A stretch of 19,188 nucleotides of DNA from Cryomorphaceae bacterium (GTDB taxonomy: Bacteria > Bacteroidota > Bacteroidia > Flavobacteriales > Schleiferiaceae): the NCBI GenBank assembly GCA_013911625.1, contig JACESW010000006.1, positions 1 through 19,188 of the forward strand, read 5' to 3'. This document shows positions 1 through 18,933 of this stretch, in pieces (positions within the stretch are counted from its first letter, which is position 1; each line of letters opens with the position of its first letter). Under the pieces are notes generated by a model. The model did not search any database. It had not been told where the DNA came from and worked only from the letters and a program-made list of their open reading frames with translations. Both the position numbers and the translations under genes were made by a program.

Positions 1-2612
1 TTAATGGATATGGCGATACGCTGCTTATTCGTGCTATGGGAATAGGCGGTTGGATGGTCCAGGAAGGCTATATGCTTCAAACCGCTTCATTTGCAAATCC
101 ACAACACAAGATAAAGGATACTATTGAAGACCTTATTGGAGCTACAGCGACACAGGCTTTTTACGACGCCTGGCTAGAAAACCATTTTAATAAAGCAGAC
201 GTGGATAGCATGGCGGCTTGGGGTTTCAATACCATTCGAGTTCCCATGCATTACAATCTATTCACCCTGCCGATCGAAGAGGAACCTGTGCTTGGACAAA
301 ATACCTGGCGCACGAAGGGATTCAATCTTTTAGATTCAGTGGTTACTTGGGCAGAAGATGCAGGATTATATGTCATTTTAGATCTTCATGCAGCTCCTGG
401 GGGTCAGGGATATGATCAGGGTATTAGTGATTACGATCCTACTAAGCCTTCTTTGTGGGAAAGTGTGCACAATAGAACAAAGACGGTAGCGCTCTGGAAA
501 AAATTGGCGGAAAAGTTTGCCACAGATACTACCATCGCTGGGTATGATTTAATCAACGAACCCAACTGGAACTTACCGGGTGGGACGTTGCTAAGAAATC
601 TTTACGAAGACATCACAGATAGTATACGAACCGTGGATACCAACCACATCATCTTTATAGAAGGGAATTGGTTCGCAAATACATTTACGGGATTGACGCC
701 TCCATGGGACAACAACATGGCCTATTCACCTCATAAGTATTGGTCTCCGGTAAATAGTATCGCTGACATTCAGTATGGATTGGACCTAAGAGATACGTAC
801 AACGTGCCTATCTGGTTTGGTGAAACGGGTGAAAACTCCAATGCTTGGTACACGGGTTTAATTAGCATTATGGAATCCGAGGGAGTCGGCTGGGCGTGGT
901 GGCCATTGAAGAAGGTCGAGACCATAAATGCCCCTCTAAGCATCACTAAGAATCTTGGGTATCAGCAGTTGTTGAATTATTGGAGCGGTAATGCGAGCGC
1001 TCCGTCTGTTGCAGATGCTACAGCGGCACTCATGCAGCTTGCAACCAACCTTAAAGCTGAGAATTGTACCTACAATAGAGGGGTCATCGATGCAATGTTT
1101 AGACAGATTTACGATCCTACTGCATTGCCATGGAAGGAGCACACTATTCCGGGTATTGTTCACGCTTCAGAATATGACATGGGTCCTTTAGGAGTCGCTT
1201 ATTACGACACAGAATCCATGCAATTGAACCCCCCGCCCGCATGGAACAGTGGCTGGACGTATAGAAATGATGGGGTAGATGTGCAGGCATTCTCAGATTT
1301 CGTGAATAGTAATGGCTACTGTGTGGGCTGGGTAGATACGGACGACTGGATGCAATACACTGTAGAGATTGCGCAAGACAGTGTGTACACGATCAAAGTG
1401 CGTCAAGGTGCAAACGGTGCTACTGGCGGAAACTTTTACTTTGAAGCGGACGGCGTAAAATTGACCCCGAACTATTACGCTTCGAATACAGGAAGCTGGT
1501 CTATTCTGGCGGATAAGGTAATTCCCAATGTCATTCTATCTTCTGAGGATAAGACGCTTCGCTTTGTAGCGAATAGCGGTGGCTTCAATGTCGCCAGCTT
1601 TGAATTTATCCCAACGGGAAGTACAACAGCATTGGATGCTGAATATGTTAGTTCAAATACATACAGCTATACTGAAATTGAGGTCAAAACCAACAAGCCT
1701 TTGGACACGACCCAGCTTGGAAATTTTGCCTCTTATTACGTTACGATAAATGGAAATCAGGCATCGGTGGTGAACATCGCACCTAGTCCAAACAATGTTC
1801 GAAACTTCATCTTGACGCTGAATCAGAACATGACCTTTTTAGATGAAATGAAGGTTTCTTATTCAGGAACTGCCCTTAAGGCTAAGGATGGAACGGCTGT
1901 AGATCCATTCACTCAGGAATTGGTTGAAAACACATTACCGACAGTACATGTCATTCCGGGTAAAATAGAAGCAGAAGCCTATTCTAGCATGGATGGAATT
2001 TCATTGGAGAACACATCCGATGTTGGTGGCGGGCAGAACATCGGTTATCTAGACGGTGGAGATTATTTGCTGTACGATATCAAGGTGTTAAACAATGCTA
2101 CCTATTCCATTGATTACCGCCACGCTTCACAAAGCAACGGTAAGATTCAATTTGAATTGTACGATACGTCAGGAACGTACCTAAGCAATATGCCAGAAGT
2201 CACATTACCTTCGACCGGTGGATGGCAAACGTGGAACACGACTAGTGGAAATGCTGGTGTGCTGACACAGGGCGATTACATCTTGAAGTTGAATGTTATT
2301 CAAGCTCCTGTGAACATCAATTGGTTTGAGTTTATTCAAGGAATAGGTGTAGAAGAGGAAATGGCTTCAGACAACCTTATGGTATATCCAAATCCAGCAC
2401 AAGATGGATTCAAGCTAGGTGGCATGTGGGCTGAAGGAGCCCCGCTCGAAATTTATGTGTATGACGAGTCCGGTAGGCTTTGGATTAAAGAGTCGCTGAC
2501 CTATGCTTCGGATCGCGTTATTTCTACCAAGGAGTTATCTACAGGGACCTATCTCGTAACTGTAGTTTCTTCTGGAAAAAGGTTTACAGAAAAACTCCTA
2601 ATTGTCCAATGA
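1..2612 (+). CDS. GH5 glycoside hydrolase with two CBM6 modules and T9SS sorting domain (5' end outside window)
   Basis: Secreted endo/exo-glucanase-like enzyme acting on a beta-glucan or related polysaccharide; the subfamily and substrate cannot be settled by eye. The reading frame is open to the window edge (first full codon at base 3, reading NGYGDTLLIRAMGIGGWM), so the ATG at 36 is an internal methionine of the usual GH5 'RG.GIGGW' N-terminal motif and the true start with its signal peptide lies upstream. Numbering from that Met: GH5 barrel about 1-340, acid/base Glu175 in INEP, nucleophile Glu263 in WFGETGE; first CBM6 about 371-526 (SEYDMG, VGWVDTDDWMQYTV); Ig/SwmB-like linker domain about 527-636; second CBM6 about 637-768 (IEAEAYS, YLDGGDYLLY); Por-type C-terminal sorting domain about 778-858 (VYPNPAQDGF ... 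GTYLVTV ... KLLIVQ). The tail predicts export by the type IX system and surface attachment or release. The stop overlaps the next gene by 4 bp, suggesting cotranscription. Confidence 0.93.
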   Translation, partial: NGYGDTLLIRAMGIGGWMVQEGYMLQTASFANPQHKIKDTIEDLIGATATQAFYDAWLENHFNKADVDSMAAWGFNTIRVPMHYNLFTLPIEEEPVLGQNTWRTKGFNLLDSVVTWAEDAGLYVILDLHAAPGGQGYDQGISDYDPTKPSLWESVHNRTKTVALWKKLAEKFATDTTIAGYDLINEPNWNLPGGTLLRNLYEDITDSIRTVDTNHIIFIEGNWFANTFTGLTPPWDNNMAYSPHKYWSPVNSIADIQYGLDLRDTYNVPIWFGETGENSNAWYTGLISIMESEGVGWAWWPLKKVETINAPLSITKNLGYQQLLNYWSGNASAPSVADATAALMQLATNLKAENCTYNRGVIDAMFRQIYDPTALPWKEHTIPGIVHASEYDMGPLGVAYYDTESMQLNPPPAWNSGWTYRNDGVDVQAFSDFVNSNGYCVGWVDTDDWMQYTVEIAQDSVYTIKVRQGANGATGGNFYFEADGVKLTPNYYASNTGSWSILADKVIPNVILSSEDKTLRFVANSGGFNVASFEFIPTGSTTALDAEYVSSNTYSYTEIEVKTNKPLDTTQLGNFASYYVTINGNQASVVNIAPSPNNVRNFILTLNQNMTFLDEMKVSYSGTALKAKDGTAVDPFTQELVENTLPTVHVIPGKIEAEAYSSMDGISLENTSDVGGGQNIGYLDGGDYLLYDIKVLNNATYSIDYRHASQSNGKIQFELYDTSGTYLSNMPEVTLPSTGGWQTWNTTSGNAGVLTQGDYILKLNVIQAPVNINWFEFIQGIGVEEEMASDNLMVYPNPAQDGFKLGGMWAEGAPLEIYVYDESGRLWIKESLTYASDRVISTKELSTGTYLVTVVSSGKRFTEKLLIVQ

Positions 2613-5006: not shown

Positions 5007-5786
5007 TTAAGCCGCCTCTTCTTTCGTGCTAACAGCAAGAGAGTAGATAACTAGACCGAATCCAATTTTGTTAACCGCATCACCAATGTTGTAAACAACA
5101 TCCATATATGCAGATGCAGCAGCTGGGTCAGAAACTAATTGCATTCCGAACAAACCGCCTGGTGTACCCAAGATGTAACCTAATGGGTAAATTGCCCATC
5201 CTACTAAAACGAACCAGAAAAGAACTTTTACTGCTTTCGCTACTGCAGGACCAGCGTTGGCTGCCAACTGAGCCACTTCTCCTTTCCACACCAAGAATAC
5301 GATGTAGAAGTAAGCAGCACCAGAGATAACACCCCAAAGAACTGAAGACTCACGGTAAATTGTCTCACCGAGGTAACCAGTTACAAGCATAACTACAGAC
5401 GCAAAGATGAGTTTCCATAGAAGACCCATTTTAGCACCAGCTTTCTTTGTGATCAAGTAGAACTCAACACACATTAGTGGTACAGTTAGCGTCCAGTCAA
5501 CGTAACGGAAGAATGTTGGAGATTCTCCAGTTTCGAAGTGGTAGCTTCTCATGTAGTAGTAGTGTACGAACGCGATGAACGTAATCAAACCACTAACCAA
5601 TAAAGAAGTACGCCATTTCTTATCTACGTTCCACATTTCGAAGAAGAAGAACACAGATGCAGCCATCATAGCCATACAGCCTACGAAAAACGTAAACGAA
5701 GTAACGGTTGTGATGTCAGTGTAGGCAGTTAAATCTACTGCCGCGTTGCTAGCACTTACGCTAGCCAATAAAGTTGTCAATGACAT
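5007..5786 (-). CDS. proteorhodopsin, light-driven proton pump
   Basis: Seven-helix retinal protein of the inner membrane that pumps protons outward in light. Residues 1-108 happen to share numbering with the classic green proteorhodopsin: His75 (FVHYY), Asp97 proton acceptor, Thr101, Met105 spectral-tuning site and Glu108 proton donor in RYVDWTLTVPLMCVEF. The DTE motif indicates a proton pump rather than a sodium (NDQ) or chloride (NTQ) pump, and Met105 predicts green absorption, as in other flavobacterial proteorhodopsins. The retinal Schiff-base lysine is Lys240, with Asp236 four residues before it in YNIGDAVNKIGFG. Helix E reads LWGVISGAAYF; Gly152 aligns with the fenestration glycine of xanthorhodopsin and Gloeobacter rhodopsin. 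The length of 259 is normal. Codon use is strongly biased (Tyr almost only TAC, Asn only AAC, Phe mostly TTC), consistent with high expression. It is transcribed divergently from crtY-blh, which would supply retinal. Confidence 0.98.
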   Translation of the reverse strand: MSLTTLLASVSASNAAVDLTAYTDITTVTSFTFFVGCMAMMAASVFFFFEMWNVDKKWRTSLLVSGLITFIAFVHYYYMRSYHFETGESPTFFRYVDWTLTVPLMCVEFYLITKKAGAKMGLLWKLIFASVVMLVTGYLGETIYRESSVLWGVISGAAYFYIVFLVWKGEVAQLAANAGPAVAKAVKVLFWFVLVGWAIYPLGYILGTPGGLFGMQLVSDPAAASAYMDVVYNIGDAVNKIGFGLVIYSLAVSTKEEAA

Positions 5787-5998
5787 GGTGTATAATTATT
5801 AAAGGTTATAACTACCACTTAACTGCCCCATATGGAATTTGTTCACAGACGTTTAAAATTGAGTAAAAAAACTTAAACAATACCTGTTTTTCATCGTTTT
5901 AAACGCTGATTACATCCATTTTCACCCCTTTTCGAGAACAAAACAACGTGTTTCGGGTTCATTAAAATAAAAGGTCGTTTAGACATTTAATAGTAATC
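5787..5998. promoter_or_regulatory. divergent control region between rhodopsin and crtY-blh
   Basis: This 212-bp AT-rich interval must hold the promoters of both the rhodopsin (minus) and the crtY-blh fusion (plus). I see no perfect TAnnTTTG box for either gene. It contains three related GTTTAA-type elements: GTTTAA at 5851-5856 and TTAAAC at 5873-5878 form an inverted repeat, and CGTTTTAAACG at 5895-5905 is a separate near-palindrome. These could be a regulator site coordinating the two genes; that is inference. No ORF of interest lies within. Confidence 0.5.
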
Positions 5999-7969
5999 GT
6001 GTATACTTTTGGACTCATAGGATTAGGAGCTGCAAATTCTTTGCTCTTGTTGCACATGGAAAAAGAAGGCTTGCTGGAGGAATCGGCAGGTATAGTATTT
6101 GACCACAGCTTCAAAGCAATGAACGATAAGACCTATTGTTTCTGGGCCTATCCTGACGATGAAATCGTACAGGACTTAGGAGCAGAGATTAAGCATAGCT
6201 GGTCTAGAGTAGTTTCTGGTAATAAGGCAGAACACCTGAAGGGTATGCGTTATTATATGGTAGAAAGTATTGCGCTTTACGACAAGACCCGAGCCTTATT
6301 AGAGCGCCATCCAAACATCAAAGCATCCAATGCGGAGGTTCGAGAGATAGAAGACCACGATGTTTACATCGATCTTCATACCAATGAAGGAAGCTATCAA
6401 GCCTTAAAGGTGTACGACAGTCGTCCGCCGTCAATCAATGAGGTTATAGGTCAAACCGTTTGGCAAAGCTTTGAGGGTTGGAAGGTTTCCTTTGATAAGC
6501 CAAAGTTCAATGAGGAGACCATGCGCCTGATGGATTTCAATATTCCACAAAGCGGCTTCACACAATTTGTTTACGTTTTACCCACGAGTAAGACTGAAGC
6601 GCTTATCGAGCTTACAAGATTTGGAAATGAATTACTCTCACCAGAACTGGCCAAGGATTTATTGCGCAACTATCTACTGACCTTCAATGGCAATTACAGT
6701 ATTAATGATATTGAACGGGGCGTATTACCTATGTCTCAGAACGCTGAGCAGTACCACCGCAGTACAAAAGTAATCTCAACGGGTGCTCGTGCGGGCAAGT
6801 TGAAAGCGACTACAGGCTATGCGTTTAAAAACATGTACGAGCACGGCCGAGAAATTGCGGTGAACGAATCATTGAATAAATCCACAAACCCTTGGTTTGG
6901 ATTGCCTTCAAGAGGCGGTGGTCGTTTTGCTTTTTATGATTTTGTCTTGCTCTTTATTTTGAAGTTTAGACCGCACTGGGGGAAAAGTATTTTCACCCGA
7001 CTTTTTAAATCAAAGCCTACCGCAGAGGTATTTACCTTCTTGGATGAAAAGAGTAGCGTACGATGGGAAATTGGCATGTTTGCTCGATTGAATAAACGCA
7101 AATTTATTTGGAGTGCCGTGGTATCGGCTTTTGCTTTTATGTTGTCCAAACCACAGCGTTGGGTGCCTATTGTGTTTTCCCTTTTGGCACTTGCCATCAA
7201 CCATTTTTCGCCAGGATATGGCACCAATCTAGGTATTGGCTTGTTGCTGTTCTTCCTCTTTTTGGTTGGGATTCCTCACGGCGCACTCGATGGATTTTCA
7301 CATGCGCGTAATTTGAAGTTACCGGCATTTATCGCTCGTTACCTTGGTATTATGGCATTGGTAGTATTGTTATGGTTGGTTAGTCCGATAGCAGGCCTTG
7401 TGTTCTTCCTCATATATAGTGCGTGGCATTTTGGCGAGACAGACCTTATTGAATGGCAGCGATCAAACGCTGGACTATCATTTTTATGGGGCACCTTGCT
7501 TCTAGGAATTGTCTTACTTTCTCATATTGAGGAAGTGAATACCATGATGGGTTATATGAATGTACCTGCATGGCCTGTCGAAGCCGGGCTGGCAATTTCT
7601 TTGGTGAATATGATGCTCTTCCTTGGATTTATGTGTGCCTTCTGGTTCAGATCGGCCGCTTGGGCACTTTCTTTAATGGCTTTGGCATTAGGGACACAGT
7701 TGCCCTTGGTATTGAGCTTTGGCGTGTATTTCGTTTTGCAACACAGCTTAACGGGTTGGGGACATTTACGCACGACAGAAAACTGGACGCATAGCGGTAT
7801 GTTCATTAAAGCGCTGCCTTTTACAGCCGGTGCCGTGATTATGTTTTTGGTGATATACCAGTTTGACCGCAGTTCAATTTGGCAGTGGTCGAGCTATTTC
7901 CTCATTTTCTTAAGCGCATTGAGTCTACCTCATATTTACTTTATGTCGCGCTTATACAAAGAAATCTAG
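5999..7969 (+). CDS. crtY-blh: fused lycopene beta-cyclase / beta-carotene 15,15'-dioxygenase (CrtY-Blh)
   Basis: Single 656-residue ORF with two carotenoid enzymes in series. The N-terminal part (about 1-370) is a CrtY-type flavoprotein lycopene cyclase: dinucleotide motif GLGAAN at 8-13, MNDKTYCFW at 41-49, FVYVLPTSKTEALIE at 190-204, and TTGYAF at 271-276. The C-terminal part (about 385-656) is a multi-pass Brp/Blh dioxygenase: GIPHGALD at 424-431, SAWHFGETD at 474-482, FVLQHSLTGWGH at 578-589 and LPHI at 643-646, giving candidate iron ligands His427, His477, His582 and/or His589, and His645. Together they would cyclise lycopene to beta-carotene and cleave it to two retinals. Both halves are close to normal stand-alone length, so this looks like a true fusion and not a truncation. 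The start is GTG; no in-frame ATG exists between it and the upstream TAA at 5963-5965, and TAT ACT TTT leads directly into the Rossmann strand. It faces the rhodopsin gene. The stop overlaps the opposing phosphoesterase stop. Confidence 0.92.
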   Translation: MYTFGLIGLGAANSLLLLHMEKEGLLEESAGIVFDHSFKAMNDKTYCFWAYPDDEIVQDLGAEIKHSWSRVVSGNKAEHLKGMRYYMVESIALYDKTRALLERHPNIKASNAEVREIEDHDVYIDLHTNEGSYQALKVYDSRPPSINEVIGQTVWQSFEGWKVSFDKPKFNEETMRLMDFNIPQSGFTQFVYVLPTSKTEALIELTRFGNELLSPELAKDLLRNYLLTFNGNYSINDIERGVLPMSQNAEQYHRSTKVISTGARAGKLKATTGYAFKNMYEHGREIAVNESLNKSTNPWFGLPSRGGGRFAFYDFVLLFILKFRPHWGKSIFTRLFKSKPTAEVFTFLDEKSSVRWEIGMFARLNKRKFIWSAVVSAFAFMLSKPQRWVPIVFSLLALAINHFSPGYGTNLGIGLLLFFLFLVGIPHGALDGFSHARNLKLPAFIARYLGIMALVVLLWLVSPIAGLVFFLIYSAWHFGETDLIEWQRSNAGLSFLWGTLLLGIVLLSHIEEVNTMMGYMNVPAWPVEAGLAISLVNMMLFLGFMCAFWFRSAAWALSLMALALGTQLPLVLSFGVYFVLQHSLTGWGHLRTTENWTHSGMFIKALPFTAGAVIMFLVIYQFDRSSIWQWSSYFLIFLSALSLPHIYFMSRLYKEI

Positions 7970-12195: not shown

Positions 12196-12726
12196 ATGTC
12201 GAATAAACGCAATGACATTATATCTGCTGCCCTAGATTTGTTTTCTGAAAAGGGGTATGCGGCAACTTCTACCGCTCGAATTGCTCAGGAGGCAGGGGTG
12301 AGTGAAGGCCTTATATTTCGGCATTTTAAGAACAAGCGCGGTTTGGTGGAAGAATTGCTCCAGCAAAGCGACGATCGCTATCAGAATGAAATTCAACAGT
12401 TTATTTCGGTAGAGGATCCTGCAACACTCCTTCGTGCCTTTATAGACTACTCTGTGCGTACCATACAGTATGTGGATAGTGCGAAGATGTGGATTACCTC
12501 ATTGCGGCTTTCCCAGGAATTAGGTATAGATCATGAGTTGCGTTACGCGGTATTGCTGGAGCGACTTGCTTGGGCCTTAGGCGCTATAGGGCATGGAAAA
12601 CCGACGGATGTTGCACGCACTTTGCTAAGCGCGCAAGAAGGAATGTTGGCACCGGGTGCATTGGGCCATATGGGTATAGTAGAATCCATTGCAGCTGGAA
12701 TGCGGGAATTGGTGCTGAATGAGTGA
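12196..12726 (+). CDS. TetR/AcrR-family transcriptional regulator
   Basis: 176-residue DNA-binding repressor. The N-terminal helix-turn-helix domain occupies about residues 5-52: RNDIISAALDLFSEKGYAATS, then IAQEAGVSEGLIFRHFKNK, with recognition helix about 36-44. The C-terminal ligand-binding part (about 60-176) is helical with no family signature I can name. The ATG directly abuts the operator palindrome. A second copy of this palindrome overlaps the 3' end of the gene and precedes a TAGATTTG promoter box. The downstream RND efflux operon suggests a drug- or stress-responsive repressor of efflux; that target assignment is inference, because a terminator and a second regulator gene lie between. 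The ligand is unknown. Confidence 0.92.
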   Translation: MSNKRNDIISAALDLFSEKGYAATSTARIAQEAGVSEGLIFRHFKNKRGLVEELLQQSDDRYQNEIQQFISVEDPATLLRAFIDYSVRTIQYVDSAKMWITSLRLSQELGIDHELRYAVLLERLAWALGAIGHGKPTDVARTLLSAQEGMLAPGALGHMGIVESIAAGMRELVLNE

Positions 12727-12739
12727 GTAATTACTTATT
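12722..12739. promoter_or_regulatory. TetR operator, copy 2
   Basis: AGTGAGTAATTACTTATT matches operator copy 1 at 15 of 18 positions and has the perfect core AGTAATTACT at 12726-12735. It straddles the tetR stop codon and lies just upstream of a TAGATTTG box, in the spacer where a repressor would block RNA polymerase. Confidence 0.6.
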
Positions 12740-12745
12740 ATTGAG

Positions 12746-12753
12746 TAGATTTG
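12746..12753 (+). promoter_or_regulatory. promoter -7 box downstream of tetR
   Basis: TAGATTTG is a full match to the Bacteroidota TAnnTTTG consensus, seven bases after operator copy 2. The expected -33 TTG is not present at ideal spacing, so strength is uncertain. It would start a transcript near 12757-12760. Confidence 0.5.
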
Positions 12754-12754
12754 C

Positions 12755-12833
12755 AATCTCAACGAATATTGTTTGATTTTCATTGAGGTTATAACACGAA
12801 ATCCTGGGCACATCGCGGTCCGGGATTTTTTTT
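12755..12833 (+). ncRNA. candidate short terminated RNA or operon leader
   Basis: A stretch of about 75 bases bounded by a TAGATTTG box and an intrinsic terminator, with no convincing ORF. It could fold into a first stem, AATCTCAA (12755-12762) with TTGAGGTT (12783-12790), 8 pairs including one G-T and a 20-base loop, followed by the terminator stem. It may be a regulated small RNA, an attenuator leader of the efflux operon, or simply the terminated tail of the tetR transcript. Confidence 0.3.
12800..12833 (+). terminator. intrinsic terminator between tetR and the efflux operon
   Basis: Stem AATCCTGG (12800-12807) pairs with CCGGGATT (12820-12827), with one T-G wobble and a 12-base loop, and runs into eight T residues (12826-12833). 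It should stop transcripts coming from tetR, so the marR operon needs its own promoter. Confidence 0.8.
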
Positions 12834-12869
12834 GTTAAAAAGATGTCTTACGTGAGCAATTCCGGCCTG

Positions 12870-12891
12870 ATTGTTGTAATTATGCAACAAT
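12870..12891. promoter_or_regulatory. candidate MarR operator and promoter of the efflux operon
   Basis: Arms ATTGTTG (12870-12876) and CAACAAT (12885-12891) are perfect inverted repeats around an 8-base spacer. The spacer holds TAATTATG (12877-12884), one mismatch from the TAnnTTTG box. A MarR dimer bound here would cover the -7 box of its own operon, about 22 bases before the marR start. The length and TTG...CAA symmetry suit MarR-type sites. Confidence 0.5.
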
Positions 12892-12912
12892 TGTTCAAAC
12901 ACCCTTAGCAAT

Positions 12913-13368
12913 TTGACTTCGAACATCACCCATTTTCTTCCGTACCTAATAGGAAAGGCTCATAAAAACCTGAGAAACATTATGGTTTCTGAGCTTGAGA
13001 ACAAAGGGCTGCAAATCAATGCGGCTGCTTTGCCTATTCTCGGTAAGATGCTTCTTGGAGGTGGTTCAGTACAGCAAGGAGCTCTTGTGGAACTGCTTGA
13101 AGTGGATCGGCACCGCGTGAGCCGTATGGTCAAGGAGTTGCAGGGGGCGGACATTGTAGCCGTGGAACAGAATCCAGGGAATAAGCGAGAGAATATTTTG
13201 GTGTTTACCAAGCACGGGAAATCAGTGATTAGGATCATAGATGAGACGGCGGTAGACATTACAGAATTGGCTTTCCAAGGAATATCAAAAGAAGCTCGTG
13301 AAATCACCGAGCATACATTAAGACAAATCACCAAAAACCTCAATCCAGAAAATTATGAAGTGGATTAA
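12913..13368 (+). CDS. MarR-family transcriptional regulator
   Basis: 151-residue winged-helix regulator and first gene of the efflux operon. N-terminal dimerisation helices (about 5-35) are followed by the DNA-binding domain: QQGALVELLEVDRHRVSRMVKEL, with recognition helix about 65-76, and a wing at about 85-99 (QNPGNKRENILVFT) with the basic residues usual at its tip. A C-terminal helix completes the dimer interface. The start is TTG: no ATG or GTG is in frame between it and the upstream stop at 12877-12879, and the first internal Met (residue 24) would remove a dimerisation helix. The gene overlaps the adaptor gene by 14 bp, so translation is probably coupled. It probably represses its own operon and is relieved by a pump substrate; the ligand is unknown. 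Confidence 0.88.
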   Translation: MTSNITHFLPYLIGKAHKNLRNIMVSELENKGLQINAAALPILGKMLLGGGSVQQGALVELLEVDRHRVSRMVKELQGADIVAVEQNPGNKRENILVFTKHGKSVIRIIDETAVDITELAFQGISKEAREITEHTLRQITKNLNPENYEVD

Positions 13369-14461
13369 AAATGCCATCATCGCATTAGCTATCCTAGCAG
13401 TAGGATTATTCGTTTCCAAGACCTTAGGCGGCATGTCCACTAAGGAAGAAATCAAAGAAGATAACATCAAGCTTCAGGTCCGTGTAGTAGACGCAAAGCT
13501 TGATACAGTTGCCTTGCCGATCACGGTATACGGCCGCCTAAATGCTGCCAACAGAGCGGATCTGCTTGCTGAGGTTAGTGGAACGTTTAAAGGTAGCGAC
13601 CGCGCCTTCTTGGAAGGGACGAGATTCTCCAAAGGCGAGACCATTATTCGCCTGGACGATAGTGAAGCGCGTGCCAATGCGATGAGTGTAAAAGGCAACT
13701 TCATCAATACGTTATTGGCCATTTTACCCGATTTGAATCAGGATTACCCTTCAGACTATGCACGTTTCAAAGCGTACTATGACAACACCAGCTTGAAGAA
13801 ATCCTTGGAGGCATTGCCGAAGGCTGAAGGCAAGCTCGAAAAGTTTTTGATCGCCCGTGGCATTCAAGGGGCCTTTTTCCAAGCCAAGAGCGCTGAGGAG
13901 CGTCTTGCTAAGTTTAGTATTACTGCACCTTTTAATGGTGTTGTGGCTGCGGCGAACGTAAAGCCGGGTAACCTAGTGAGTCCAGGACGCGCCTTGGGAA
14001 CCTTTGTAAATACCGACAGTTACGAATTGCGTAGCGCGGTGAGTCTTCGTTATGCCGACCAGTTAAGCGTGGGGCAAAAGGTGGCTTTCAGCTCTCCAGA
14101 TATCGCAGGCGCTTGGACAGGCACTATCTCGAGAATAGCTCCAGTGGTGGATGCGGCTTCGCAAAGCATCAATATTATTACTACAGTTCGTGGCGCAGCC
14201 TTGCGCGAAGGCATGTACCTCACCGGACAAATTCAAGGTATTGCCGTAATGGATGCCCTGAAACTTCCCGCGTCAATGGTCTTCGACAATAAGTACATGT
14301 ACATGATCGAAAGTGACAGCGTTTTGGCAAAGAACGAGGTTGAGGTTGTGGAATGGTTAGACAACGAGGTGATTGTACGTGGCGTAACAAATGGCGCTAC
14401 GATGGTGAACGAGCCGACGCTGAAAGCGGCGGCGGGATTGGTTGTTGTACCTGTGAAATAA
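13355..14461 (+). CDS. RND efflux periplasmic adaptor (HlyD/AcrA-type membrane fusion protein)
   Basis: 368-residue adaptor expected to bridge the RND permease and the TolC-like channel. An N-terminal uncleaved anchor or signal (about 6-20, AIIALAILAVGLFV) has no lipobox cysteine. Beta-barrel and lipoyl halves follow: GRLNAANRADLLAEVSG (60-76) and FSITAPFNGVVAAANVKPGNLVSPG (about 187-211), then a beta-barrel (about 222-295) and membrane-proximal domain to the end. The segment between the two lipoyl halves (about 104-187) is not the usual long heptad coiled-coil hairpin; it contains a proline-rich LPDLNQDYPSDYARFKAYY block. It overlaps marR by 14 bp and ends 7 bp before the permease, as expected for one operon. 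Confidence 0.92.
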   Translation: MKWIKNAIIALAILAVGLFVSKTLGGMSTKEEIKEDNIKLQVRVVDAKLDTVALPITVYGRLNAANRADLLAEVSGTFKGSDRAFLEGTRFSKGETIIRLDDSEARANAMSVKGNFINTLLAILPDLNQDYPSDYARFKAYYDNTSLKKSLEALPKAEGKLEKFLIARGIQGAFFQAKSAEERLAKFSITAPFNGVVAAANVKPGNLVSPGRALGTFVNTDSYELRSAVSLRYADQLSVGQKVAFSSPDIAGAWTGTISRIAPVVDAASQSINIITTVRGAALREGMYLTGQIQGIAVMDALKLPASMVFDNKYMYMIESDSVLAKNEVEVVEWLDNEVIVRGVTNGATMVNEPTLKAAAGLVVVPVK

Positions 14462-14468
14462 GGGAGCC

Positions 14469-17400
14469 ATGAAGAGATTAATTGAATTTTTCATCAAATA
14501 TCCCGTTGGGGTAGACGCCCTTTTGATTGGGTTCTTCTTCTTCGGTTGGATCAGCTACGGAAAGCTGAACACTACCTTCTTTCCATTGGTGGAGAGTCGC
14601 GATATCACCATCAGCGCGGTATATCCGGGTGCTTCCCCTGAGGAGATTGAAGAGGGGGTAGTTAATAAGATTGAGCAAAACCTCAAGGGCTTGACCGGGG
14701 TGGAGCAATACACGTCTACCTCGAACGAGAATCGGGCCTCTATTAACGTTAAAGTCATTAAAGGCTACGACACAGACCTGGTATTGGAGGATGTTAAGAA
14801 TGCCGTACAGAGCGTGCCTTCTTTCCCCACCGGTTTGGAGCCAATTCGTGTGGCAAAACGCGAGAACAGAACGCTCGCTATGAGCATAGCCCTCACTGGT
14901 GAAGGAGTTGATCTTATAAGTTTGAAGCAAGAAGGACGCAGAATAGAGCAGGAGCTACGCCTACAAGACGGCATCTCCAAAGTTTCCTTAAGTGGATTCC
15001 CAGACGAGGAAATTGAGATTGCCTTGGACAAAAGCACCTTGCGCAAATACGACCTAAGCTTGTCTCAGATTGCCAATGCATTACGCACAACCAACCTAGA
15101 CATCACAGGAGGTACCATTAAGGGTACCCAAGAAGAGATGTTAATTCGCTCACGCAACAAGCAATACGATGCGAAGGATCTTCAGAATATTGTAGTATTT
15201 ACGCGCCCTTCAGGACAAACAATTCGACTGAAGGATGTCGGTGAGGTCCGCAACCGCTGGGCCGACAGCCCTTCTAGAGCAGCCTTCAACGGGATTAATT
15301 CTGTTGAGATTAGCGTAAACAATACCGACCAAGAGGATTTGTTGAGCACCTGTGAGTTTGTGAACAACTACGTGAAGGAGTACAATGCGAGCAACGACCA
15401 TATGCAGCTCGATGTCATCACCGATTTCTCAGTAACCCTGCAGCAACGCAAAGACTTGCTCTTTGAGAATGGGCTGCTTGGATTCTTCCTGGTACTTATT
15501 CTATTGACGCTTTTCTTGAACCTCAGATTGGCCTTCTGGGTCGCCATTGGTATTCCTGTTTCATTTGCCGGTATGTTCATTTTGGCGACCTATTTCGGCA
15601 TTACCATCAACGTTATTTCGCTGTTCGGTATGATCGTGGTTATCGGTATTCTCGTTGATGATGGGATTGTCATCGCGGAGAACATCTATGCGCACTTCGA
15701 GCGCGGAAAACCACTACTTCGTGCTGCTTTGGACGGTACTGTAGAGGTTATTCCTTCAGTAGTAAGTGCCGTATTGACGACTATTATTGCCTTCTCTTCG
15801 TTCTTCTTCTTGGACGGTAGAGCAGGAGACTTCTTCTCAGAAATGTCCTTTATTGTTATTGCGACGTTGGCCGTTTCGTTGATCGAGGGGCTCTTGTTCC
15901 TTCCGACCCACCTCTCTCACGCGAAGCTTGAGCGCAACGCGAAGATGAACCCCATCCAAAGCGCGGCAACGAAGGCGTTGTTTAGGTTTAGAGATAAGAT
16001 CTATGCCCCGTTCTTACGTTGGTCTTTGCACAACAAGATCATCACCATCAGCTTTTTCTTCGCAATCATGTTTGTGACCTTTGGGGCCATTGGTGGCGGT
16101 ATTATTCGGACTCAATTCTTCCCGTTCATCGAGCGCGATAATTTGAACATCAGTTTAGATATGCCAGCGGGTACCAATGAAGCGGTGACGCAAAAGTGGA
16201 TTGACCATATTGAAGCTACCGTTTGGGAGGTAAATGAGCAGTATAAGTCAGAACGGGAAGACAGCTTGGACGTGGTTCGTGCCATTCAAAAGAACATTGG
16301 CCCAATTTCTTCCAAAGCGCGTCTTAATGTCCTTTTGCTAGATAGTGAGACTAGATTAACGCCTTCTTACCTCATTCAAAACGACATCCGTAAGGCTGCA
16401 GGGGAGATTGAAGGTGCTGATAATGTGAGTTTTGGCGGCGTTCAGGCCTTTGGTAAGCCTATTTCAATTTCACTGGTCAGCTATGACCTCGTGGAACTCA
16501 AGGCAGCCAAGGAGGCGCTTAAGTCAAAACTTAAACTCATGGACGCCCTGACCGATGTGATTGATAACGACCAGAAAGGAATTCGCGAGGTGACCCTTGA
16601 GTTGACCGATAAGGCACGCTATTTAGGCCTAACCCCAGGAGCAGTTATGAGCCAGGTTCGTGAAACCTTCTTCGGGGCGCAGGTGCAACGCTTGCAACGC
16701 GGTGAGGACGAGGTGAAAGTATGGGTACGCTTGGACGAAAAGGACCGCAAGCAATTGTGGGATTTAGAGGAACTATTAATCACTACACCACAGGGCAATG
16801 TGCCGTTAAGGGAATTGGCCACCTATACCATTGAAAGGGGAACGGTGAACATCAACCACCTGGACGGGCAGCGCGAGTACCGTGTGGAGAGCGATTTGAG
16901 CAGTCCTAACGGCTCAGCGCCAGCGCTACTTTCGCAAATCAAGACAGATATCTTGCCTGAGATTTTTGCAAAGTACCCATCAGTGACCGCACGTTACGAA
17001 GGCCAACAGAAAGAGAGCCAGAAGACCCAAGACAGCTCACAAACCGTGATGCCGCTTATCCTCTTCCTGATTATATTGACCATCACCTTTACCTTCCGTT
17101 CATTAGTGCAAACCATAGTAATTATGCTGCTTATCCCGCTCAGTTTAACCGGGGTCGCTTGGGGACACTGGTTGCACGGCATGCCAATGTCTATCCTCAG
17201 CTTCCTAGGGGTTGTGGCACTCATCGGTATTATCGTGAACGACAGTTTGGTGCTAGTGAGCAAATACAACATCAATGTGAAGAGTGGCGAGAAGGTGTAT
17301 GATGCAATTTTTAATGCAGGTATCAGCCGATTCCGTGCCATCTTCCTAACCACAGTGACCACTATTGCTGGTCTGGCGCCGCTCATCTTCGAAACCTCCT

Positions 17401-17630
17401 TCCAAGCACAGTTCCTCATACCGATGGCGGTGGCTATTGCTTACGGAATTGGTTTTGCGACGATGTTGACGCTCGTGGTCCTGCCGTCGATGATGGCCTT
17501 AGTGAATGATGCACGCGTTTTGATTCGCCACATCTGGACGAATGAGAAGCCTACTCGCGAAGAAGTCGAGCCGGCCATCAAGGAAATGAAGAGTGAACAA
17601 TACTTTAAAGAATTAAACAATGCTGAATAA
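14469..17630 (+). CDS. RND-family efflux permease (AcrB-like)
   Basis: 1053-residue proton-driven inner-membrane transporter of the resistance-nodulation-division superfamily, normal length for the hydrophobe/amphiphile efflux group. It shows the tandem layout of two membrane blocks, each with a large periplasmic loop: TM1 about 12-30, loop to about 330, TM2-6 about 335-480, TM7 about 523-545, loop to about 860, TM8-12 about 862-1012. TM4 has the proton-relay pair Asp397-Asp398 in GILVDDGIVIAEN. TM10 reads LIGIIVNDSLVLVSKYN, with Asn924-Asp925 where AcrB has its relay lysine. Other expected motifs are FFPLVESRDITISAVYPGASPEEIEE (about 38-63) and FFPFIERDNLNI (550-561). It lies 7 bp after the adaptor and overlaps the outer-membrane gene by 11 bp. 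Substrate unknown; heavy-metal pumps are less likely, given the absence of CusA-type motifs. Confidence 0.95.
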   Translation: MKRLIEFFIKYPVGVDALLIGFFFFGWISYGKLNTTFFPLVESRDITISAVYPGASPEEIEEGVVNKIEQNLKGLTGVEQYTSTSNENRASINVKVIKGYDTDLVLEDVKNAVQSVPSFPTGLEPIRVAKRENRTLAMSIALTGEGVDLISLKQEGRRIEQELRLQDGISKVSLSGFPDEEIEIALDKSTLRKYDLSLSQIANALRTTNLDITGGTIKGTQEEMLIRSRNKQYDAKDLQNIVVFTRPSGQTIRLKDVGEVRNRWADSPSRAAFNGINSVEISVNNTDQEDLLSTCEFVNNYVKEYNASNDHMQLDVITDFSVTLQQRKDLLFENGLLGFFLVLILLTLFLNLRLAFWVAIGIPVSFAGMFILATYFGITINVISLFGMIVVIGILVDDGIVIAENIYAHFERGKPLLRAALDGTVEVIPSVVSAVLTTIIAFSSFFFLDGRAGDFFSEMSFIVIATLAVSLIEGLLFLPTHLSHAKLERNAKMNPIQSAATKALFRFRDKIYAPFLRWSLHNKIITISFFFAIMFVTFGAIGGGIIRTQFFPFIERDNLNISLDMPAGTNEAVTQKWIDHIEATVWEVNEQYKSEREDSLDVVRAIQKNIGPISSKARLNVLLLDSETRLTPSYLIQNDIRKAAGEIEGADNVSFGGVQAFGKPISISLVSYDLVELKAAKEALKSKLKLMDALTDVIDNDQKGIREVTLELTDKARYLGLTPGAVMSQVRETFFGAQVQRLQRGEDEVKVWVRLDEKDRKQLWDLEELLITTPQGNVPLRELATYTIERGTVNINHLDGQREYRVESDLSSPNGSAPALLSQIKTDILPEIFAKYPSVTARYEGQQKESQKTQDSSQTVMPLILFLIILTITFTFRSLVQTIVIMLLIPLSLTGVAWGHWLHGMPMSILSFLGVVALIGIIVNDSLVLVSKYNINVKSGEKVYDAIFNAGISRFRAIFLTTVTTIAGLAPLIFETSFQAQFLIPMAVAIAYGIGFATMLTLVVLPSMMALVNDARVLIRHIWTNEKPTREEVEPAIKEMKSEQYFKELNNAE

Positions 17631-18933
17631 GAGAATCTTCATCGCCGCAGCACTGCTTCTAGGTTGGAGCAGCTACGGACAGAATGTGTTGACGTTAGAC
17701 AATGCATTGAGCTTAGCATTGGAGCACAACCACGATTTGCACATTGCTCGCCTAGATGCTGAGCAGGCAGCAAATTCTGCAACCCAGGGCAATGCCGGTC
17801 GCCTCCCTAGTCTTACAGCTTCGGCGGGTACCAACTACAGCAATCAGAATTCAAATCTTGAATTTGCTACGGGACAGACGCAAGATGTCGAAGGTGCGGA
17901 GTCGCTCTCGCAGAATGCTTCGTTGGGCGTTAGTCAGGTCTTGTTTGCAGGAGGCCGTATACAACGCAGCTATCAATTGTTGAATAGTGCTAAAAATGCA
18001 GCGGATCTCGCTCAAAAGCAAGCCATGGAAAATACCATTGCCCAGGTCTGGTCGCAATACACAGGCATCTCTTTGTTGCAGCGCACGGTAGCAACGGCAG
18101 CAGAGAACTTCAACATTAGTAAAGAGCGCTTTGATAAGGCGCAATTGACCAATGAGCTCGGCGGATCAAATTCAACGGACCTCATGGCCGCGAAGGTGGA
18201 TATGAATCGCGACAAGGTGGAATTGATGGAGGCGGAGACGCAGTTGGAATCGGCTAAGAATTCATTTGCAGCATTTATTGGATATGAAGATGCATTTACC
18301 GTTTCAGATCAAACGGGATTGAACTTGGAGGAGCACTTCGACGAGGAGGAAACGCTCGAGATTATGCGTGCCGGCAATACGGCTTTGCAGTTGGCTGGAA
18401 TTTCAGCAGAGACTGCTCGTATTCAACAGCAGTTGCAACAGGCGACGCTCTTCCCAACCATTGCAGCCCAAGCGAGCTATGGCTTGAATCAAAGCCAAGC
18501 AGAGGCAGGATTTTTAGCAGCTTCACAACAGACCGGTTTGAATGCGGGTATTAGCCTTCAGTACAATCTGTTTAGCGGTTTCCAGAGTCGTACCCAGCGT
18601 CAGAATGCGAAACTCGAGGTGTTGAAAGCTGAGCACCGGGAGGCACAAACCCAGGAGCTTATCGAGAACACGGTAAAGAATGCGGTTCGTGCATTCAACA
18701 ATGCAGCTGCAGTCGCCAAGATTGAAGCGGACAACGCTGAGGTTGCGAACCAGCGCATGCTTAAAGTAAACGAGCTCTACAACCTTGGGCAAGCTTCCTC
18801 CTTGGAGCAGCGTCAAGCCCAGCTGGCCTGGTTAGCCGCGGAAAACGGAAAATCTTCAGCCCAGTTTAGGGCCGTCAATGCACAGATTGCCCTGTACCAA
18901 CTGATGGGTACATTGCTCATTACAGAGAAATAA
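17620..18933 (+). CDS. TolC-family outer-membrane efflux protein
   Basis: 437-residue outer-membrane factor that would complete the tripartite pump. A signal peptide spans about 1-20 (IFIAAALLLGWSSYG|Q). The mature protein shows the two-fold repeat of the OEP family: repeat 1 about 24-225 with RLPSLTASAGTNYS (61-74) and VLFAGGRIQRSY (107-118), and repeat 2 about 245-437 with LFPTIAAQASYGLNQ (277-291) and YNLFSGFQSRTQRQNAK (315-331). Long Ala/Gln-rich helices between the strands form the periplasmic tunnel. The absence of a lipobox suggests it is not lipidated. The ATG overlaps the end of the permease gene by 11 bp, and a strong terminator begins at the stop codon, so this is the last gene of the operon. 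Confidence 0.95.
   Translation: MLNKRIFIAAALLLGWSSYGQNVLTLDNALSLALEHNHDLHIARLDAEQAANSATQGNAGRLPSLTASAGTNYSNQNSNLEFATGQTQDVEGAESLSQNASLGVSQVLFAGGRIQRSYQLLNSAKNAADLAQKQAMENTIAQVWSQYTGISLLQRTVATAAENFNISKERFDKAQLTNELGGSNSTDLMAAKVDMNRDKVELMEAETQLESAKNSFAAFIGYEDAFTVSDQTGLNLEEHFDEEETLEIMRAGNTALQLAGISAETARIQQQLQQATLFPTIAAQASYGLNQSQAEAGFLAASQQTGLNAGISLQYNLFSGFQSRTQRQNAKLEVLKAEHREAQTQELIENTVKNAVRAFNNAAAVAKIEADNAEVANQRMLKVNELYNLGQASSLEQRQAQLAWLAAENGKSSAQFRAVNAQIALYQLMGTLLITEK

What the first reader, a model, noticed from the sequence alone, without database searches (positions are those of the whole stretch)
5999..7969. Lycopene cyclase and retinal-forming dioxygenase fused in one protein, facing the rhodopsin gene
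One uninterrupted 656-codon ORF contains a full-length CrtY flavoprotein domain and a full-length Brp/Blh dioxygenase domain. In most rhodopsin-bearing marine bacteria these are separate genes. Fusion would join the last two steps to retinal (lycopene to beta-carotene to retinal) and tie the soluble or peripheral cyclase to the integral membrane dioxygenase. This could channel beta-carotene directly to cleavage and keep it apart from the pool used for xanthophylls. I cannot tell from sequence whether this fusion has been described before.
Basis: partly seen in the sequence, partly recalled or inferred. Interest (0 to 1): 0.75.

Follow-up and report, generated by a model that had tools for sequence, protein, structure and literature searches.

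The report
Fused cyclase–dioxygenase makes rhodopsin's retinal
A marine flavobacterium-type bacterium carries one protein that joins the enzyme making beta-carotene to the enzyme cutting it into retinal, beside its rhodopsin gene, and related bacteria with the same fusion usually keep a second, unrelated cyclase next to their pigment hydroxylase, as if retinal had its own supply line.

Summary
One 656-codon ORF (5999-7969, +) holds a complete FAD-type lycopene cyclase (CrtY) and a complete Brp/Blh beta-carotene dioxygenase, divergent from a proteorhodopsin gene. It is no frame error: 118 of 120 listed homologues carry both domains, as do 25 relatives' genomes, all with a rhodopsin. In Flavobacteriales it is a minority form (69 Blh genomes: 14 fused, 4 adjacent but split, 51 other, one of these undecidable). 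Both halves keep conserved residues and are under purifying selection. Fused proteins and three split pairs form one clade in either tree. New point: 21 of 25 fusion genomes also encode an unrelated CrtYcd-type cyclase with crtZ directly upstream, whereas 49 of 52 stand-alone-CrtY genomes showed none. This fits a retinal-dedicated cyclase plus a separate xanthophyll cyclase. It is one evolutionary contrast, and three fusion genomes have crtZ without CrtYcd. Activity, channelling and products are untested. Nine searches of open papers found no account of a bacterial CrtY-Blh fusion; [quoted passage not shown]

The parts
5999..7969 (+). crtY-blh fusion gene, 656 aa, GTG start
5999..7147 (+). CrtY half, residues 1-383: FAD-type lycopene cyclase with its C-terminal helices; G8/G10 of the nucleotide-binding motif, conserved E204
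   Evidence: PF05834 7-358; conserved columns (CrtY residue numbers are 2 too high); E204 aligns with E198 of a Pantoea CrtY; best solved matches of the model are FAD-dependent enzymes
7130..7165 (+). junction region, about residues 378-389, where split relatives end CrtY and begin Blh (judged by eye)
   Evidence: ends and starts of split pairs P0142/P0201 and P0146/P0197, and the L063 junction; the model is confident here, with no disordered linker
7148..7966 (+). [quoted passage not shown] invariant His 427, 477, 582, 645 and D431
5787..5998 (.). 212-bp intergenic region between divergent rhodopsin and fusion genes; blocks next to the rhodopsin start identical in 9 of 9 aligned regions
   Evidence: no TAnnTTTG match found there
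5007..5786 (-). proteorhodopsin, 259 aa, D-T-E motif of proton pumps, Met at the tuning position, retinal Lys in DAVNK
   Evidence: PF01036; alignment to solved proteorhodopsins; residue roles recalled

Best explanation
The protein is a bifunctional, membrane-bound enzyme. Its N-terminal FAD domain cyclises both ends of lycopene to beta-carotene; its C-terminal helical iron domain splits beta-carotene into two retinals, which load the proteorhodopsin encoded beside it. It is a retinal-dedicated cyclase: in most of these bacteria xanthophylls are served by a second, non-homologous cyclase, CrtYcd, next to crtZ. Shown: both complete domains in one frame, conserved residues, purifying selection, rhodopsin in each of the 25 fusion genomes searched, the second cyclase in 21 of 25. 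Inferred: both activities, order of steps, division of labour. Least certain: physical hand-over of beta-carotene between the halves.
For: Domains. All 15 positions conserved in 48 separate Blhs are kept. In the CrtY half 52 of 71 positions conserved in 30 stand-alone CrtYs are kept. dN/dS 0.018-0.051 for each half against four relatives. Rhodopsin in 25 of 25 fusion genomes, and within the fetched flank at 21 of 28 fusion loci. One BCD match in each of the 25. Second PF05834 match: none over cut-off in the 15 genomes where every candidate was scored; in the other 10 (six candidates each, E up to 1e-8) none but a 71-aa remnant in G227. CrtYcd in 21 of 25 (in G252 in pieces at contig ends); crtZ directly upstream in 21 of these 21 (20, G252 from the coordinates). 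In 296 Flavobacteriales CrtYcd is in 13 of 14 fused genomes but 3 of 52 stand-alone-CrtY genomes; of 51 genomes with Blh elsewhere 32 have CrtYcd, 11 CrtY, none both.
Against: No activity data. The co-occurrence is one independent contrast on the CrtY tree, so the Fisher p of 3.6e-10 overstates it. G581, G498 and G485 carry the fusion and crtZ but no CrtYcd. 19 of 71 CrtY positions conserved in stand-alone flavobacterial CrtYs differ in the window; 14 of these are the commonest residue of the fused rows and 2 more match Pantoea, 3 are the window's own. Completeness of the genomes is not told. At 7 of 28 loci no rhodopsin lies in the fetched flank, two of these at contig ends.
Confidence: 0.68

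Rival explanations
1. A bifunctional enzyme without dedication: the fusion is merely a convenient co-expression of two neighbouring genes, its beta-carotene leaks freely into the common membrane pool and feeds CrtZ as well.
For: Split, overlapping crtY-blh pairs exist (4-bp overlaps in L055 and L060, 11-bp in L063, 28-bp in L053, by the first start codon), so tight co-expression may predate fusion. G581, G498 and G485 have crtZ with the fused cyclase alone. G099 has the split pair, crtZ and no CrtYcd.
Against: Retention of a second cyclase with crtZ across deep branches of the fused clade. Fused form kept over a clade whose aligned members fall to 34% identity to the window.
Confidence: 0.27
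2. CrtYcd is a monocyclase working with CruF and CrtZ on monocyclic xanthophylls (saproxanthin or myxol type), so the fused CrtY is the only source of bicyclic beta-carotene, and fusion protects it from CruF. (A sharper form of the best explanation, not exclusive of it.)
For: CruF-type genes were found in 9 fusion genomes looked at (G001, G004, G007, G008, G023, G207, G227, G267, G340), within about 3 kb of crtZ-crtYcd in 8 and on another contig in G004; Pfam-checked in G001 only, the others by similarity to it. PMC2889829 (passages read) states that the single-chain CrtYcd of its ref. 81, titled Algoriphagus in its list, is a monocyclase; PMC11855829 (passages read) shows that CruF plus a flavobacterial CrtY gives mainly monocyclic product.
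Against: 32 of 51 genomes with Blh elsewhere have CrtYcd and no CrtY, so CrtYcd there must supply whatever Blh cuts. CruF was not sought in the other 16 fusion genomes. No product data.
Confidence: 0.3
3. One half is degenerate and acts only as a membrane anchor or partner.
For: CrtY half scores low on NCBI's CrtY models (65.4 and 41.8 bits).
Against: Three stand-alone flavobacterial CrtYs also miss those cut-offs (79-124 and 45-73 bits). Purifying selection is strong in both halves; motif residues are invariant in 65 fused proteins.
Confidence: 0.04
4. Frame error or assembly artefact joining two genes.
For: None found.
Against: 118 of 120 listed homologues and 25 genomes.
Confidence: 0.01

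Closest known systems
[quoted passage not shown]
   Same: A lycopene cyclase and a C-terminal Blh in one chain, suggested by its authors to cleave beta-carotene directly to retinal.
   Different: Its cyclase is the unrelated CrtYc/d type, it also carries CrtI and CrtB, and it is eukaryotic. Convergent, not homologous, in its cyclase half.
Stand-alone FAD-type CrtY and separate Brp/Blh of rhodopsin-bearing bacteria
   Same: Same two families, same predicted reactions, conserved residues.
   Different: Two genes; of 51 Flavobacteriales genomes with Blh elsewhere 32 have CrtYcd, 11 CrtY, none both, 8 neither.
CrtIB fusion in the proteorhodopsin cluster of Verrucomicrobiota (PMC10284914, passages read)
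   Same: Natural fusion of two retinal-pathway enzymes in a rhodopsin-bearing bacterium, thought to ease metabolite transfer.
   Different: Joins desaturase and synthase, early steps. The passages I read name CrtBY and CrtIBY as known natural fusions, not CrtY-Blh.
Fungal CrtYB and thraustochytrid CrtIBY
   Same: Carotenoid-enzyme fusions that include a cyclase.
   Different: CrtYc/d-type cyclase, no Blh (PMC10016063, passages read; the fungal one partly recalled).

Membership tests
[quoted passage not shown]
   PF15461 95.1 > 28; TIGR03753 119.7 > 95.25
[quoted passage not shown]
   H427, H477, H582, H645, D431 kept; 15 of 15 positions conserved in 48 separate Blh rows. Their role as iron ligands is recalled
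[quoted passage not shown]
   Predicted only: model helices 385-655, mean pLDDT of the whole model 87.5, hydropathy
[quoted passage not shown]
   needs assay
FAD-type lycopene cyclase CrtY | Pfam Lycopene_cycl over cut-off along its length | tested here: met
   113.6 > 23.4, profile 5-364 of 380
FAD-type lycopene cyclase CrtY | NCBIfam CrtY models over cut-off | tested here: inconclusive
   Not reached, but three stand-alone flavobacterial CrtYs miss them too while a Pantoea CrtY passes: the cut-offs do not suit these proteins
FAD-type lycopene cyclase CrtY | GxG nucleotide motif, conserved Glu, flavoprotein fold | tested here: met
   G8, G10, E204 invariant in 65 fused proteins; E204 aligns with Pantoea E198; the Foldseek rows shown are FAD-dependent enzymes, UbiI 4k22 first. 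Catalytic role of the Glu is recalled
FAD-type lycopene cyclase CrtY | Bicyclising activity | not testable with these tools
   needs assay
CrtYc/d-Blh fusion (Thecamonas type) | CrtYc/d-type cyclase in the chain | tested here: not met
   Only PF05834 and PF15461 match at E up to 0.01

The most novel reading that the evidence does not exclude
These bacteria run two separate beta-ring supply lines from one lycopene pool: a retinal line inside one fused protein that never releases beta-carotene, and a xanthophyll line by CrtYcd and CrtZ. The fusion is a private metabolic compartment made by domain joining, and it let a monocyclic xanthophyll pathway and rhodopsin phototrophy coexist.
Probability: 0.33. 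Interest if true: 0.72.

Novelty: new variant of a known kind. Interest (0 to 1): 0.55.

Why it matters
How phototrophic heterotrophs split one carotenoid pool between rhodopsin chromophore and pigments is open. A natural fusion of the last two retinal steps, beside a second cyclase kept for xanthophylls, makes that testable with a few gene removals and E. coli expressions. The protein is also a ready natural part for retinal production.

Tried and rejected
Frame error: rejected. Degenerate half: rejected on residues and selection. Phage or plasmid carriage: no phage match; 17 plasmid records match in part, none over 80% of the protein; 33 viral-contig stretches matched a pattern, none encodes a relative. 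Solved structures by sequence: only spurious weak matches among the 60 of 175 shown. A 958-aa Blh frame in G507 looked like another fusion; on reading, its N-terminal part looks like a chance frame of GC-rich DNA. Weak FA_hydroxylase matches were first considered as CrtZ; the one I scanned is a Lipid_desat protein. CrtZ was instead found beside CrtYcd and judged by 44% identity to a gene next to crtB in a Pantoea cluster, since neither Pfam nor NCBIfam names it. Strict statistics for the CrtYcd association failed: one independent contrast. A promoter motif TAnnTTTG was sought between the genes and not found. Whether the trees imply one fusion with later fissions or two fusions is unresolved: P0098 (fused) pairs with L063 (split) in both. 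A paper search for the catalytic Glu of Pantoea CrtY found none; papers on Blh activity, on carotenoid-binding rhodopsins of Bacteroidota and on synthetic carotenoid-enzyme fusions were not held.

Full report
What is there. The window's + strand at 5999-7969 is one open frame of 656 codons. Pfam places Lycopene_cycl at residues 7-358 and BCD (Blh) at 420-652, both over cut-off; NCBI's Blh model is passed, its CrtY models are not. The latter is a matter of calibration: three stand-alone flavobacterial CrtYs score 79-124 bits against a cut-off of 209.5, a Pantoea CrtY 381. The GTG start is matched by ATG (five) or GTG (three) in the eight related upstream regions aligned. The gene faces a 259-aa proteorhodopsin gene across 212 bp. 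In the alignment to solved proteorhodopsins the rhodopsin has D, T and E where the green-absorbing one has its D-T-E set, and a Met after the conserved Pro-Leu (roles recalled).

Neighbours. On one side lie an M61 peptidase and a GH5/CBM6 enzyme, on the other a metallophosphoesterase whose end overlaps the fusion's end by 4 bp. No other carotenoid gene was recognised in the window by my scan, which covered 7 of its proteins.

Who has it. The protein search found 434 homologues; of the 120 listed, 118 carry both domains, at 35-97% identity. A genome scan gave 12 loci, all in MAGs titled as Bacteroidota; three are 97% identical in protein and 89-90% in DNA, titled Cryomorphaceae, Flavobacteriales and Bacteroidetes, and one partial homologue is named Schleiferiaceae. 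Some titles (Chryseobacterium gleum, Chitinophaga pinensis) are MAG labels that I do not trust. In 296 genomes of the order of the nearest relative, 69 pass the BCD cut-off: 14 in frames that hold both domains (587-700 aa), 4 with crtY and blh adjacent but split, 51 otherwise. Of the 51, 42 had their surroundings fetched; for the other 9, one search shows CrtY on another contig or none. One of the 51, G193, has its Blh cut by a contig end and cannot be judged. In 395 genomes of the phylum 58 pass, 5 of them as fusions (G001 and four more, seen); a 958-aa frame is a false lead, and G584 has crtY near blh.

Origin. In split relatives the two genes overlap, by the first start codon, by 4 bp (L055, L060), 11 bp (L063) or 28 bp (L053). 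Split CrtYs end, and split Blhs begin, at about residue 383-388 of the fusion, judged by eye, so joining needed no new linker. In the CrtY tree 41 fused rows and 3 split pairs form one group (support 91, not starred), in the Blh tree likewise (99, starred) (65 rows each, quick method). Inside it a fused protein (P0098) and a split pair (L063) are neighbours in both trees, so at least one fission or second fusion happened. The other split pairs (L053, L055, L060) lie outside. Shared history of both halves argues that they have travelled as one unit.

Is each half alive. Of 15 positions conserved in at least 95% of 48 separate Blhs, the window keeps 15, including H427, H477, H582, H645 and D431. 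Of 71 such positions in 30 stand-alone CrtYs it keeps 52; of the 19 changes 14 are the commonest residue among fused rows, 2 more match Pantoea, 3 are the window's own (CrtY numbers there are 2 too high). Across 65 fused proteins G8, G10, D140, E204, G273 and many others are invariant. dN/dS is 0.020-0.030 for the CrtY half and 0.018-0.051 for the Blh half against four relatives. The AlphaFold model (65 sequences, mean pLDDT 87.5, pTM 0.80) shows a mixed sheet-and-helix N-terminal half, a stretch of low confidence at 294-306, then helices to the end. Foldseek's 50 rows shown are FAD-dependent enzymes, UbiI first; the table gives no ranges, so that they lie on the N-terminal half is inference, and none is named as a carotenoid dioxygenase.

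The second cyclase. In a close relative with a searchable genome (G001) the rest of the pathway lies elsewhere: crtI, crtB, a NUDIX (idi-like) gene and, further on, a photolyase, after a MerR/B12 regulator. On another contig lie a 156-aa gene, a 233-aa two-repeat CrtYcd-type cyclase (PF18916, TIGR03462) and, about 2 kb on, a CruF-type gene. The 156-aa protein is 44% identical to a gene next to crtB and phytoene desaturase in a Pantoea cluster, so I call it CrtZ. CrtYcd is present in 21 of 25 fusion genomes; not found in G217, G581, G498 and G485. CrtZ lies directly upstream in 20 loci; in G252, where CrtYcd is in pieces at contig ends, the coordinates show the same order, so 21 of 21. Three of the four split-pair genomes have the same crtZ-crtYcd pair. 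In the 296-genome sample CrtYcd is in 13 of 14 fused genomes and in 3 of 52 stand-alone-CrtY genomes (two of the 52 are doubtful: G079 has a broken CrtY, G100 a partial match, and G100 is one of the 3). Of 51 genomes with Blh elsewhere 32 have CrtYcd, 11 CrtY, none both and 8 neither. Thus no other Blh-bearing genome of the sample showed both cyclase types, and the fused ones mostly do. On the CrtY tree this is one contrast, so it is a pattern, not a proof; the Fisher test (p 3.6e-10) ignores kinship.

Against the pattern. G581, G498 and G485 have the fusion and a CrtZ but no CrtYcd and no second CrtY; if complete, their fusion must feed xanthophylls. G217 lacks both CrtYcd and CrtZ, and G296 lacks any phytoene-synthase match, which may be missing contigs; completeness is not told. 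The PF05834 order search scored six candidates per genome at E up to 1e-8, the PF18916 one up to 16, so weak second copies could be missed there; every candidate was scored for PF05834 in 15 of 25 fusion genomes, where only the fusion passes the cut-off.

Link to rhodopsin. All 25 fusion genomes searched have a rhodopsin. It lies within the fetched flank at 21 of 28 fusion loci: divergent in the window's nearest relatives, same strand and upstream in L008-L012, same strand and downstream in L178 and L179. Not in the flank: L007, L067, L068, L076, L079, L180, L181, of which L076 and L079 start at a contig end.

What is known. Nine paper searches on the question and passages of eight papers showed no account of a bacterial CrtY-Blh fusion; many subscription papers and preprints are not in that library, and I read listings and passages, not whole texts, so this is no proof of absence. 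The nearest published case seen is the CrtI-CrtB-CrtYc/d-Blh protein of Thecamonas trahens, whose cyclase is unrelated. A CrtIB fusion is reported from Verrucomicrobiota. Database entries already show both Pfam domains, and some carry the name lycopene beta-cyclase: the architecture is visible but, as far as I found, not discussed.

Verdict. A real, conserved, single-gene candidate for a lycopene-to-retinal enzyme: a new variant of a known kind. The dedication of a second cyclase to retinal is the part worth a specialist's time. Bifunctionality is very likely, dedication likely, physical channelling open.

Noticed in passing
window 36-2612: GH5 cellulase domain with CBM6/CBM35 and a Por secretion tail: a secreted polysaccharide-degrading enzyme.
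   Followed up: partly
window 12196-18933: TetR and MarR regulators followed by what look, by eye, like an RND-type efflux trio: membrane-fusion, inner-membrane and outer-membrane proteins (the trio was not scanned).
   Followed up: no
L070 2043-6864: In G227 the fusion is flanked by two rhodopsin genes, and a small CrtY remnant (71-aa frame) lies beyond one of them.
   Followed up: no
L068, genome G023: Fusion on a 2.84-Mb contig, far from the rhodopsin, which instead lies about 3 kb from crtZ-crtYcd.
   Followed up: partly
L057 5103-6031: Rhodopsin gene read in two frames of 159 and 150 aa beside a divergent Blh: broken gene or sequencing error.
   Followed up: no
genomes G033 G041 G045 G090 G248 G268 G297 G302: Blh but neither CrtY nor CrtYcd found: missing contigs, another cyclase type, or carotenoid uptake.
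   Followed up: no
L052, L054, L056-L059, L061, L062: Rhodopsin-linked Blhs of very divergent sequence; the two placed in the tree (L052, L056) share a branch of 3.2 changes per site.
   Followed up: no
L175 5282-12025: crtI-crtB cluster with a MerR/B12-binding regulator (CarH-like), NUDIX and photolyase genes: suggests light control of carotenoids.
   Followed up: partly
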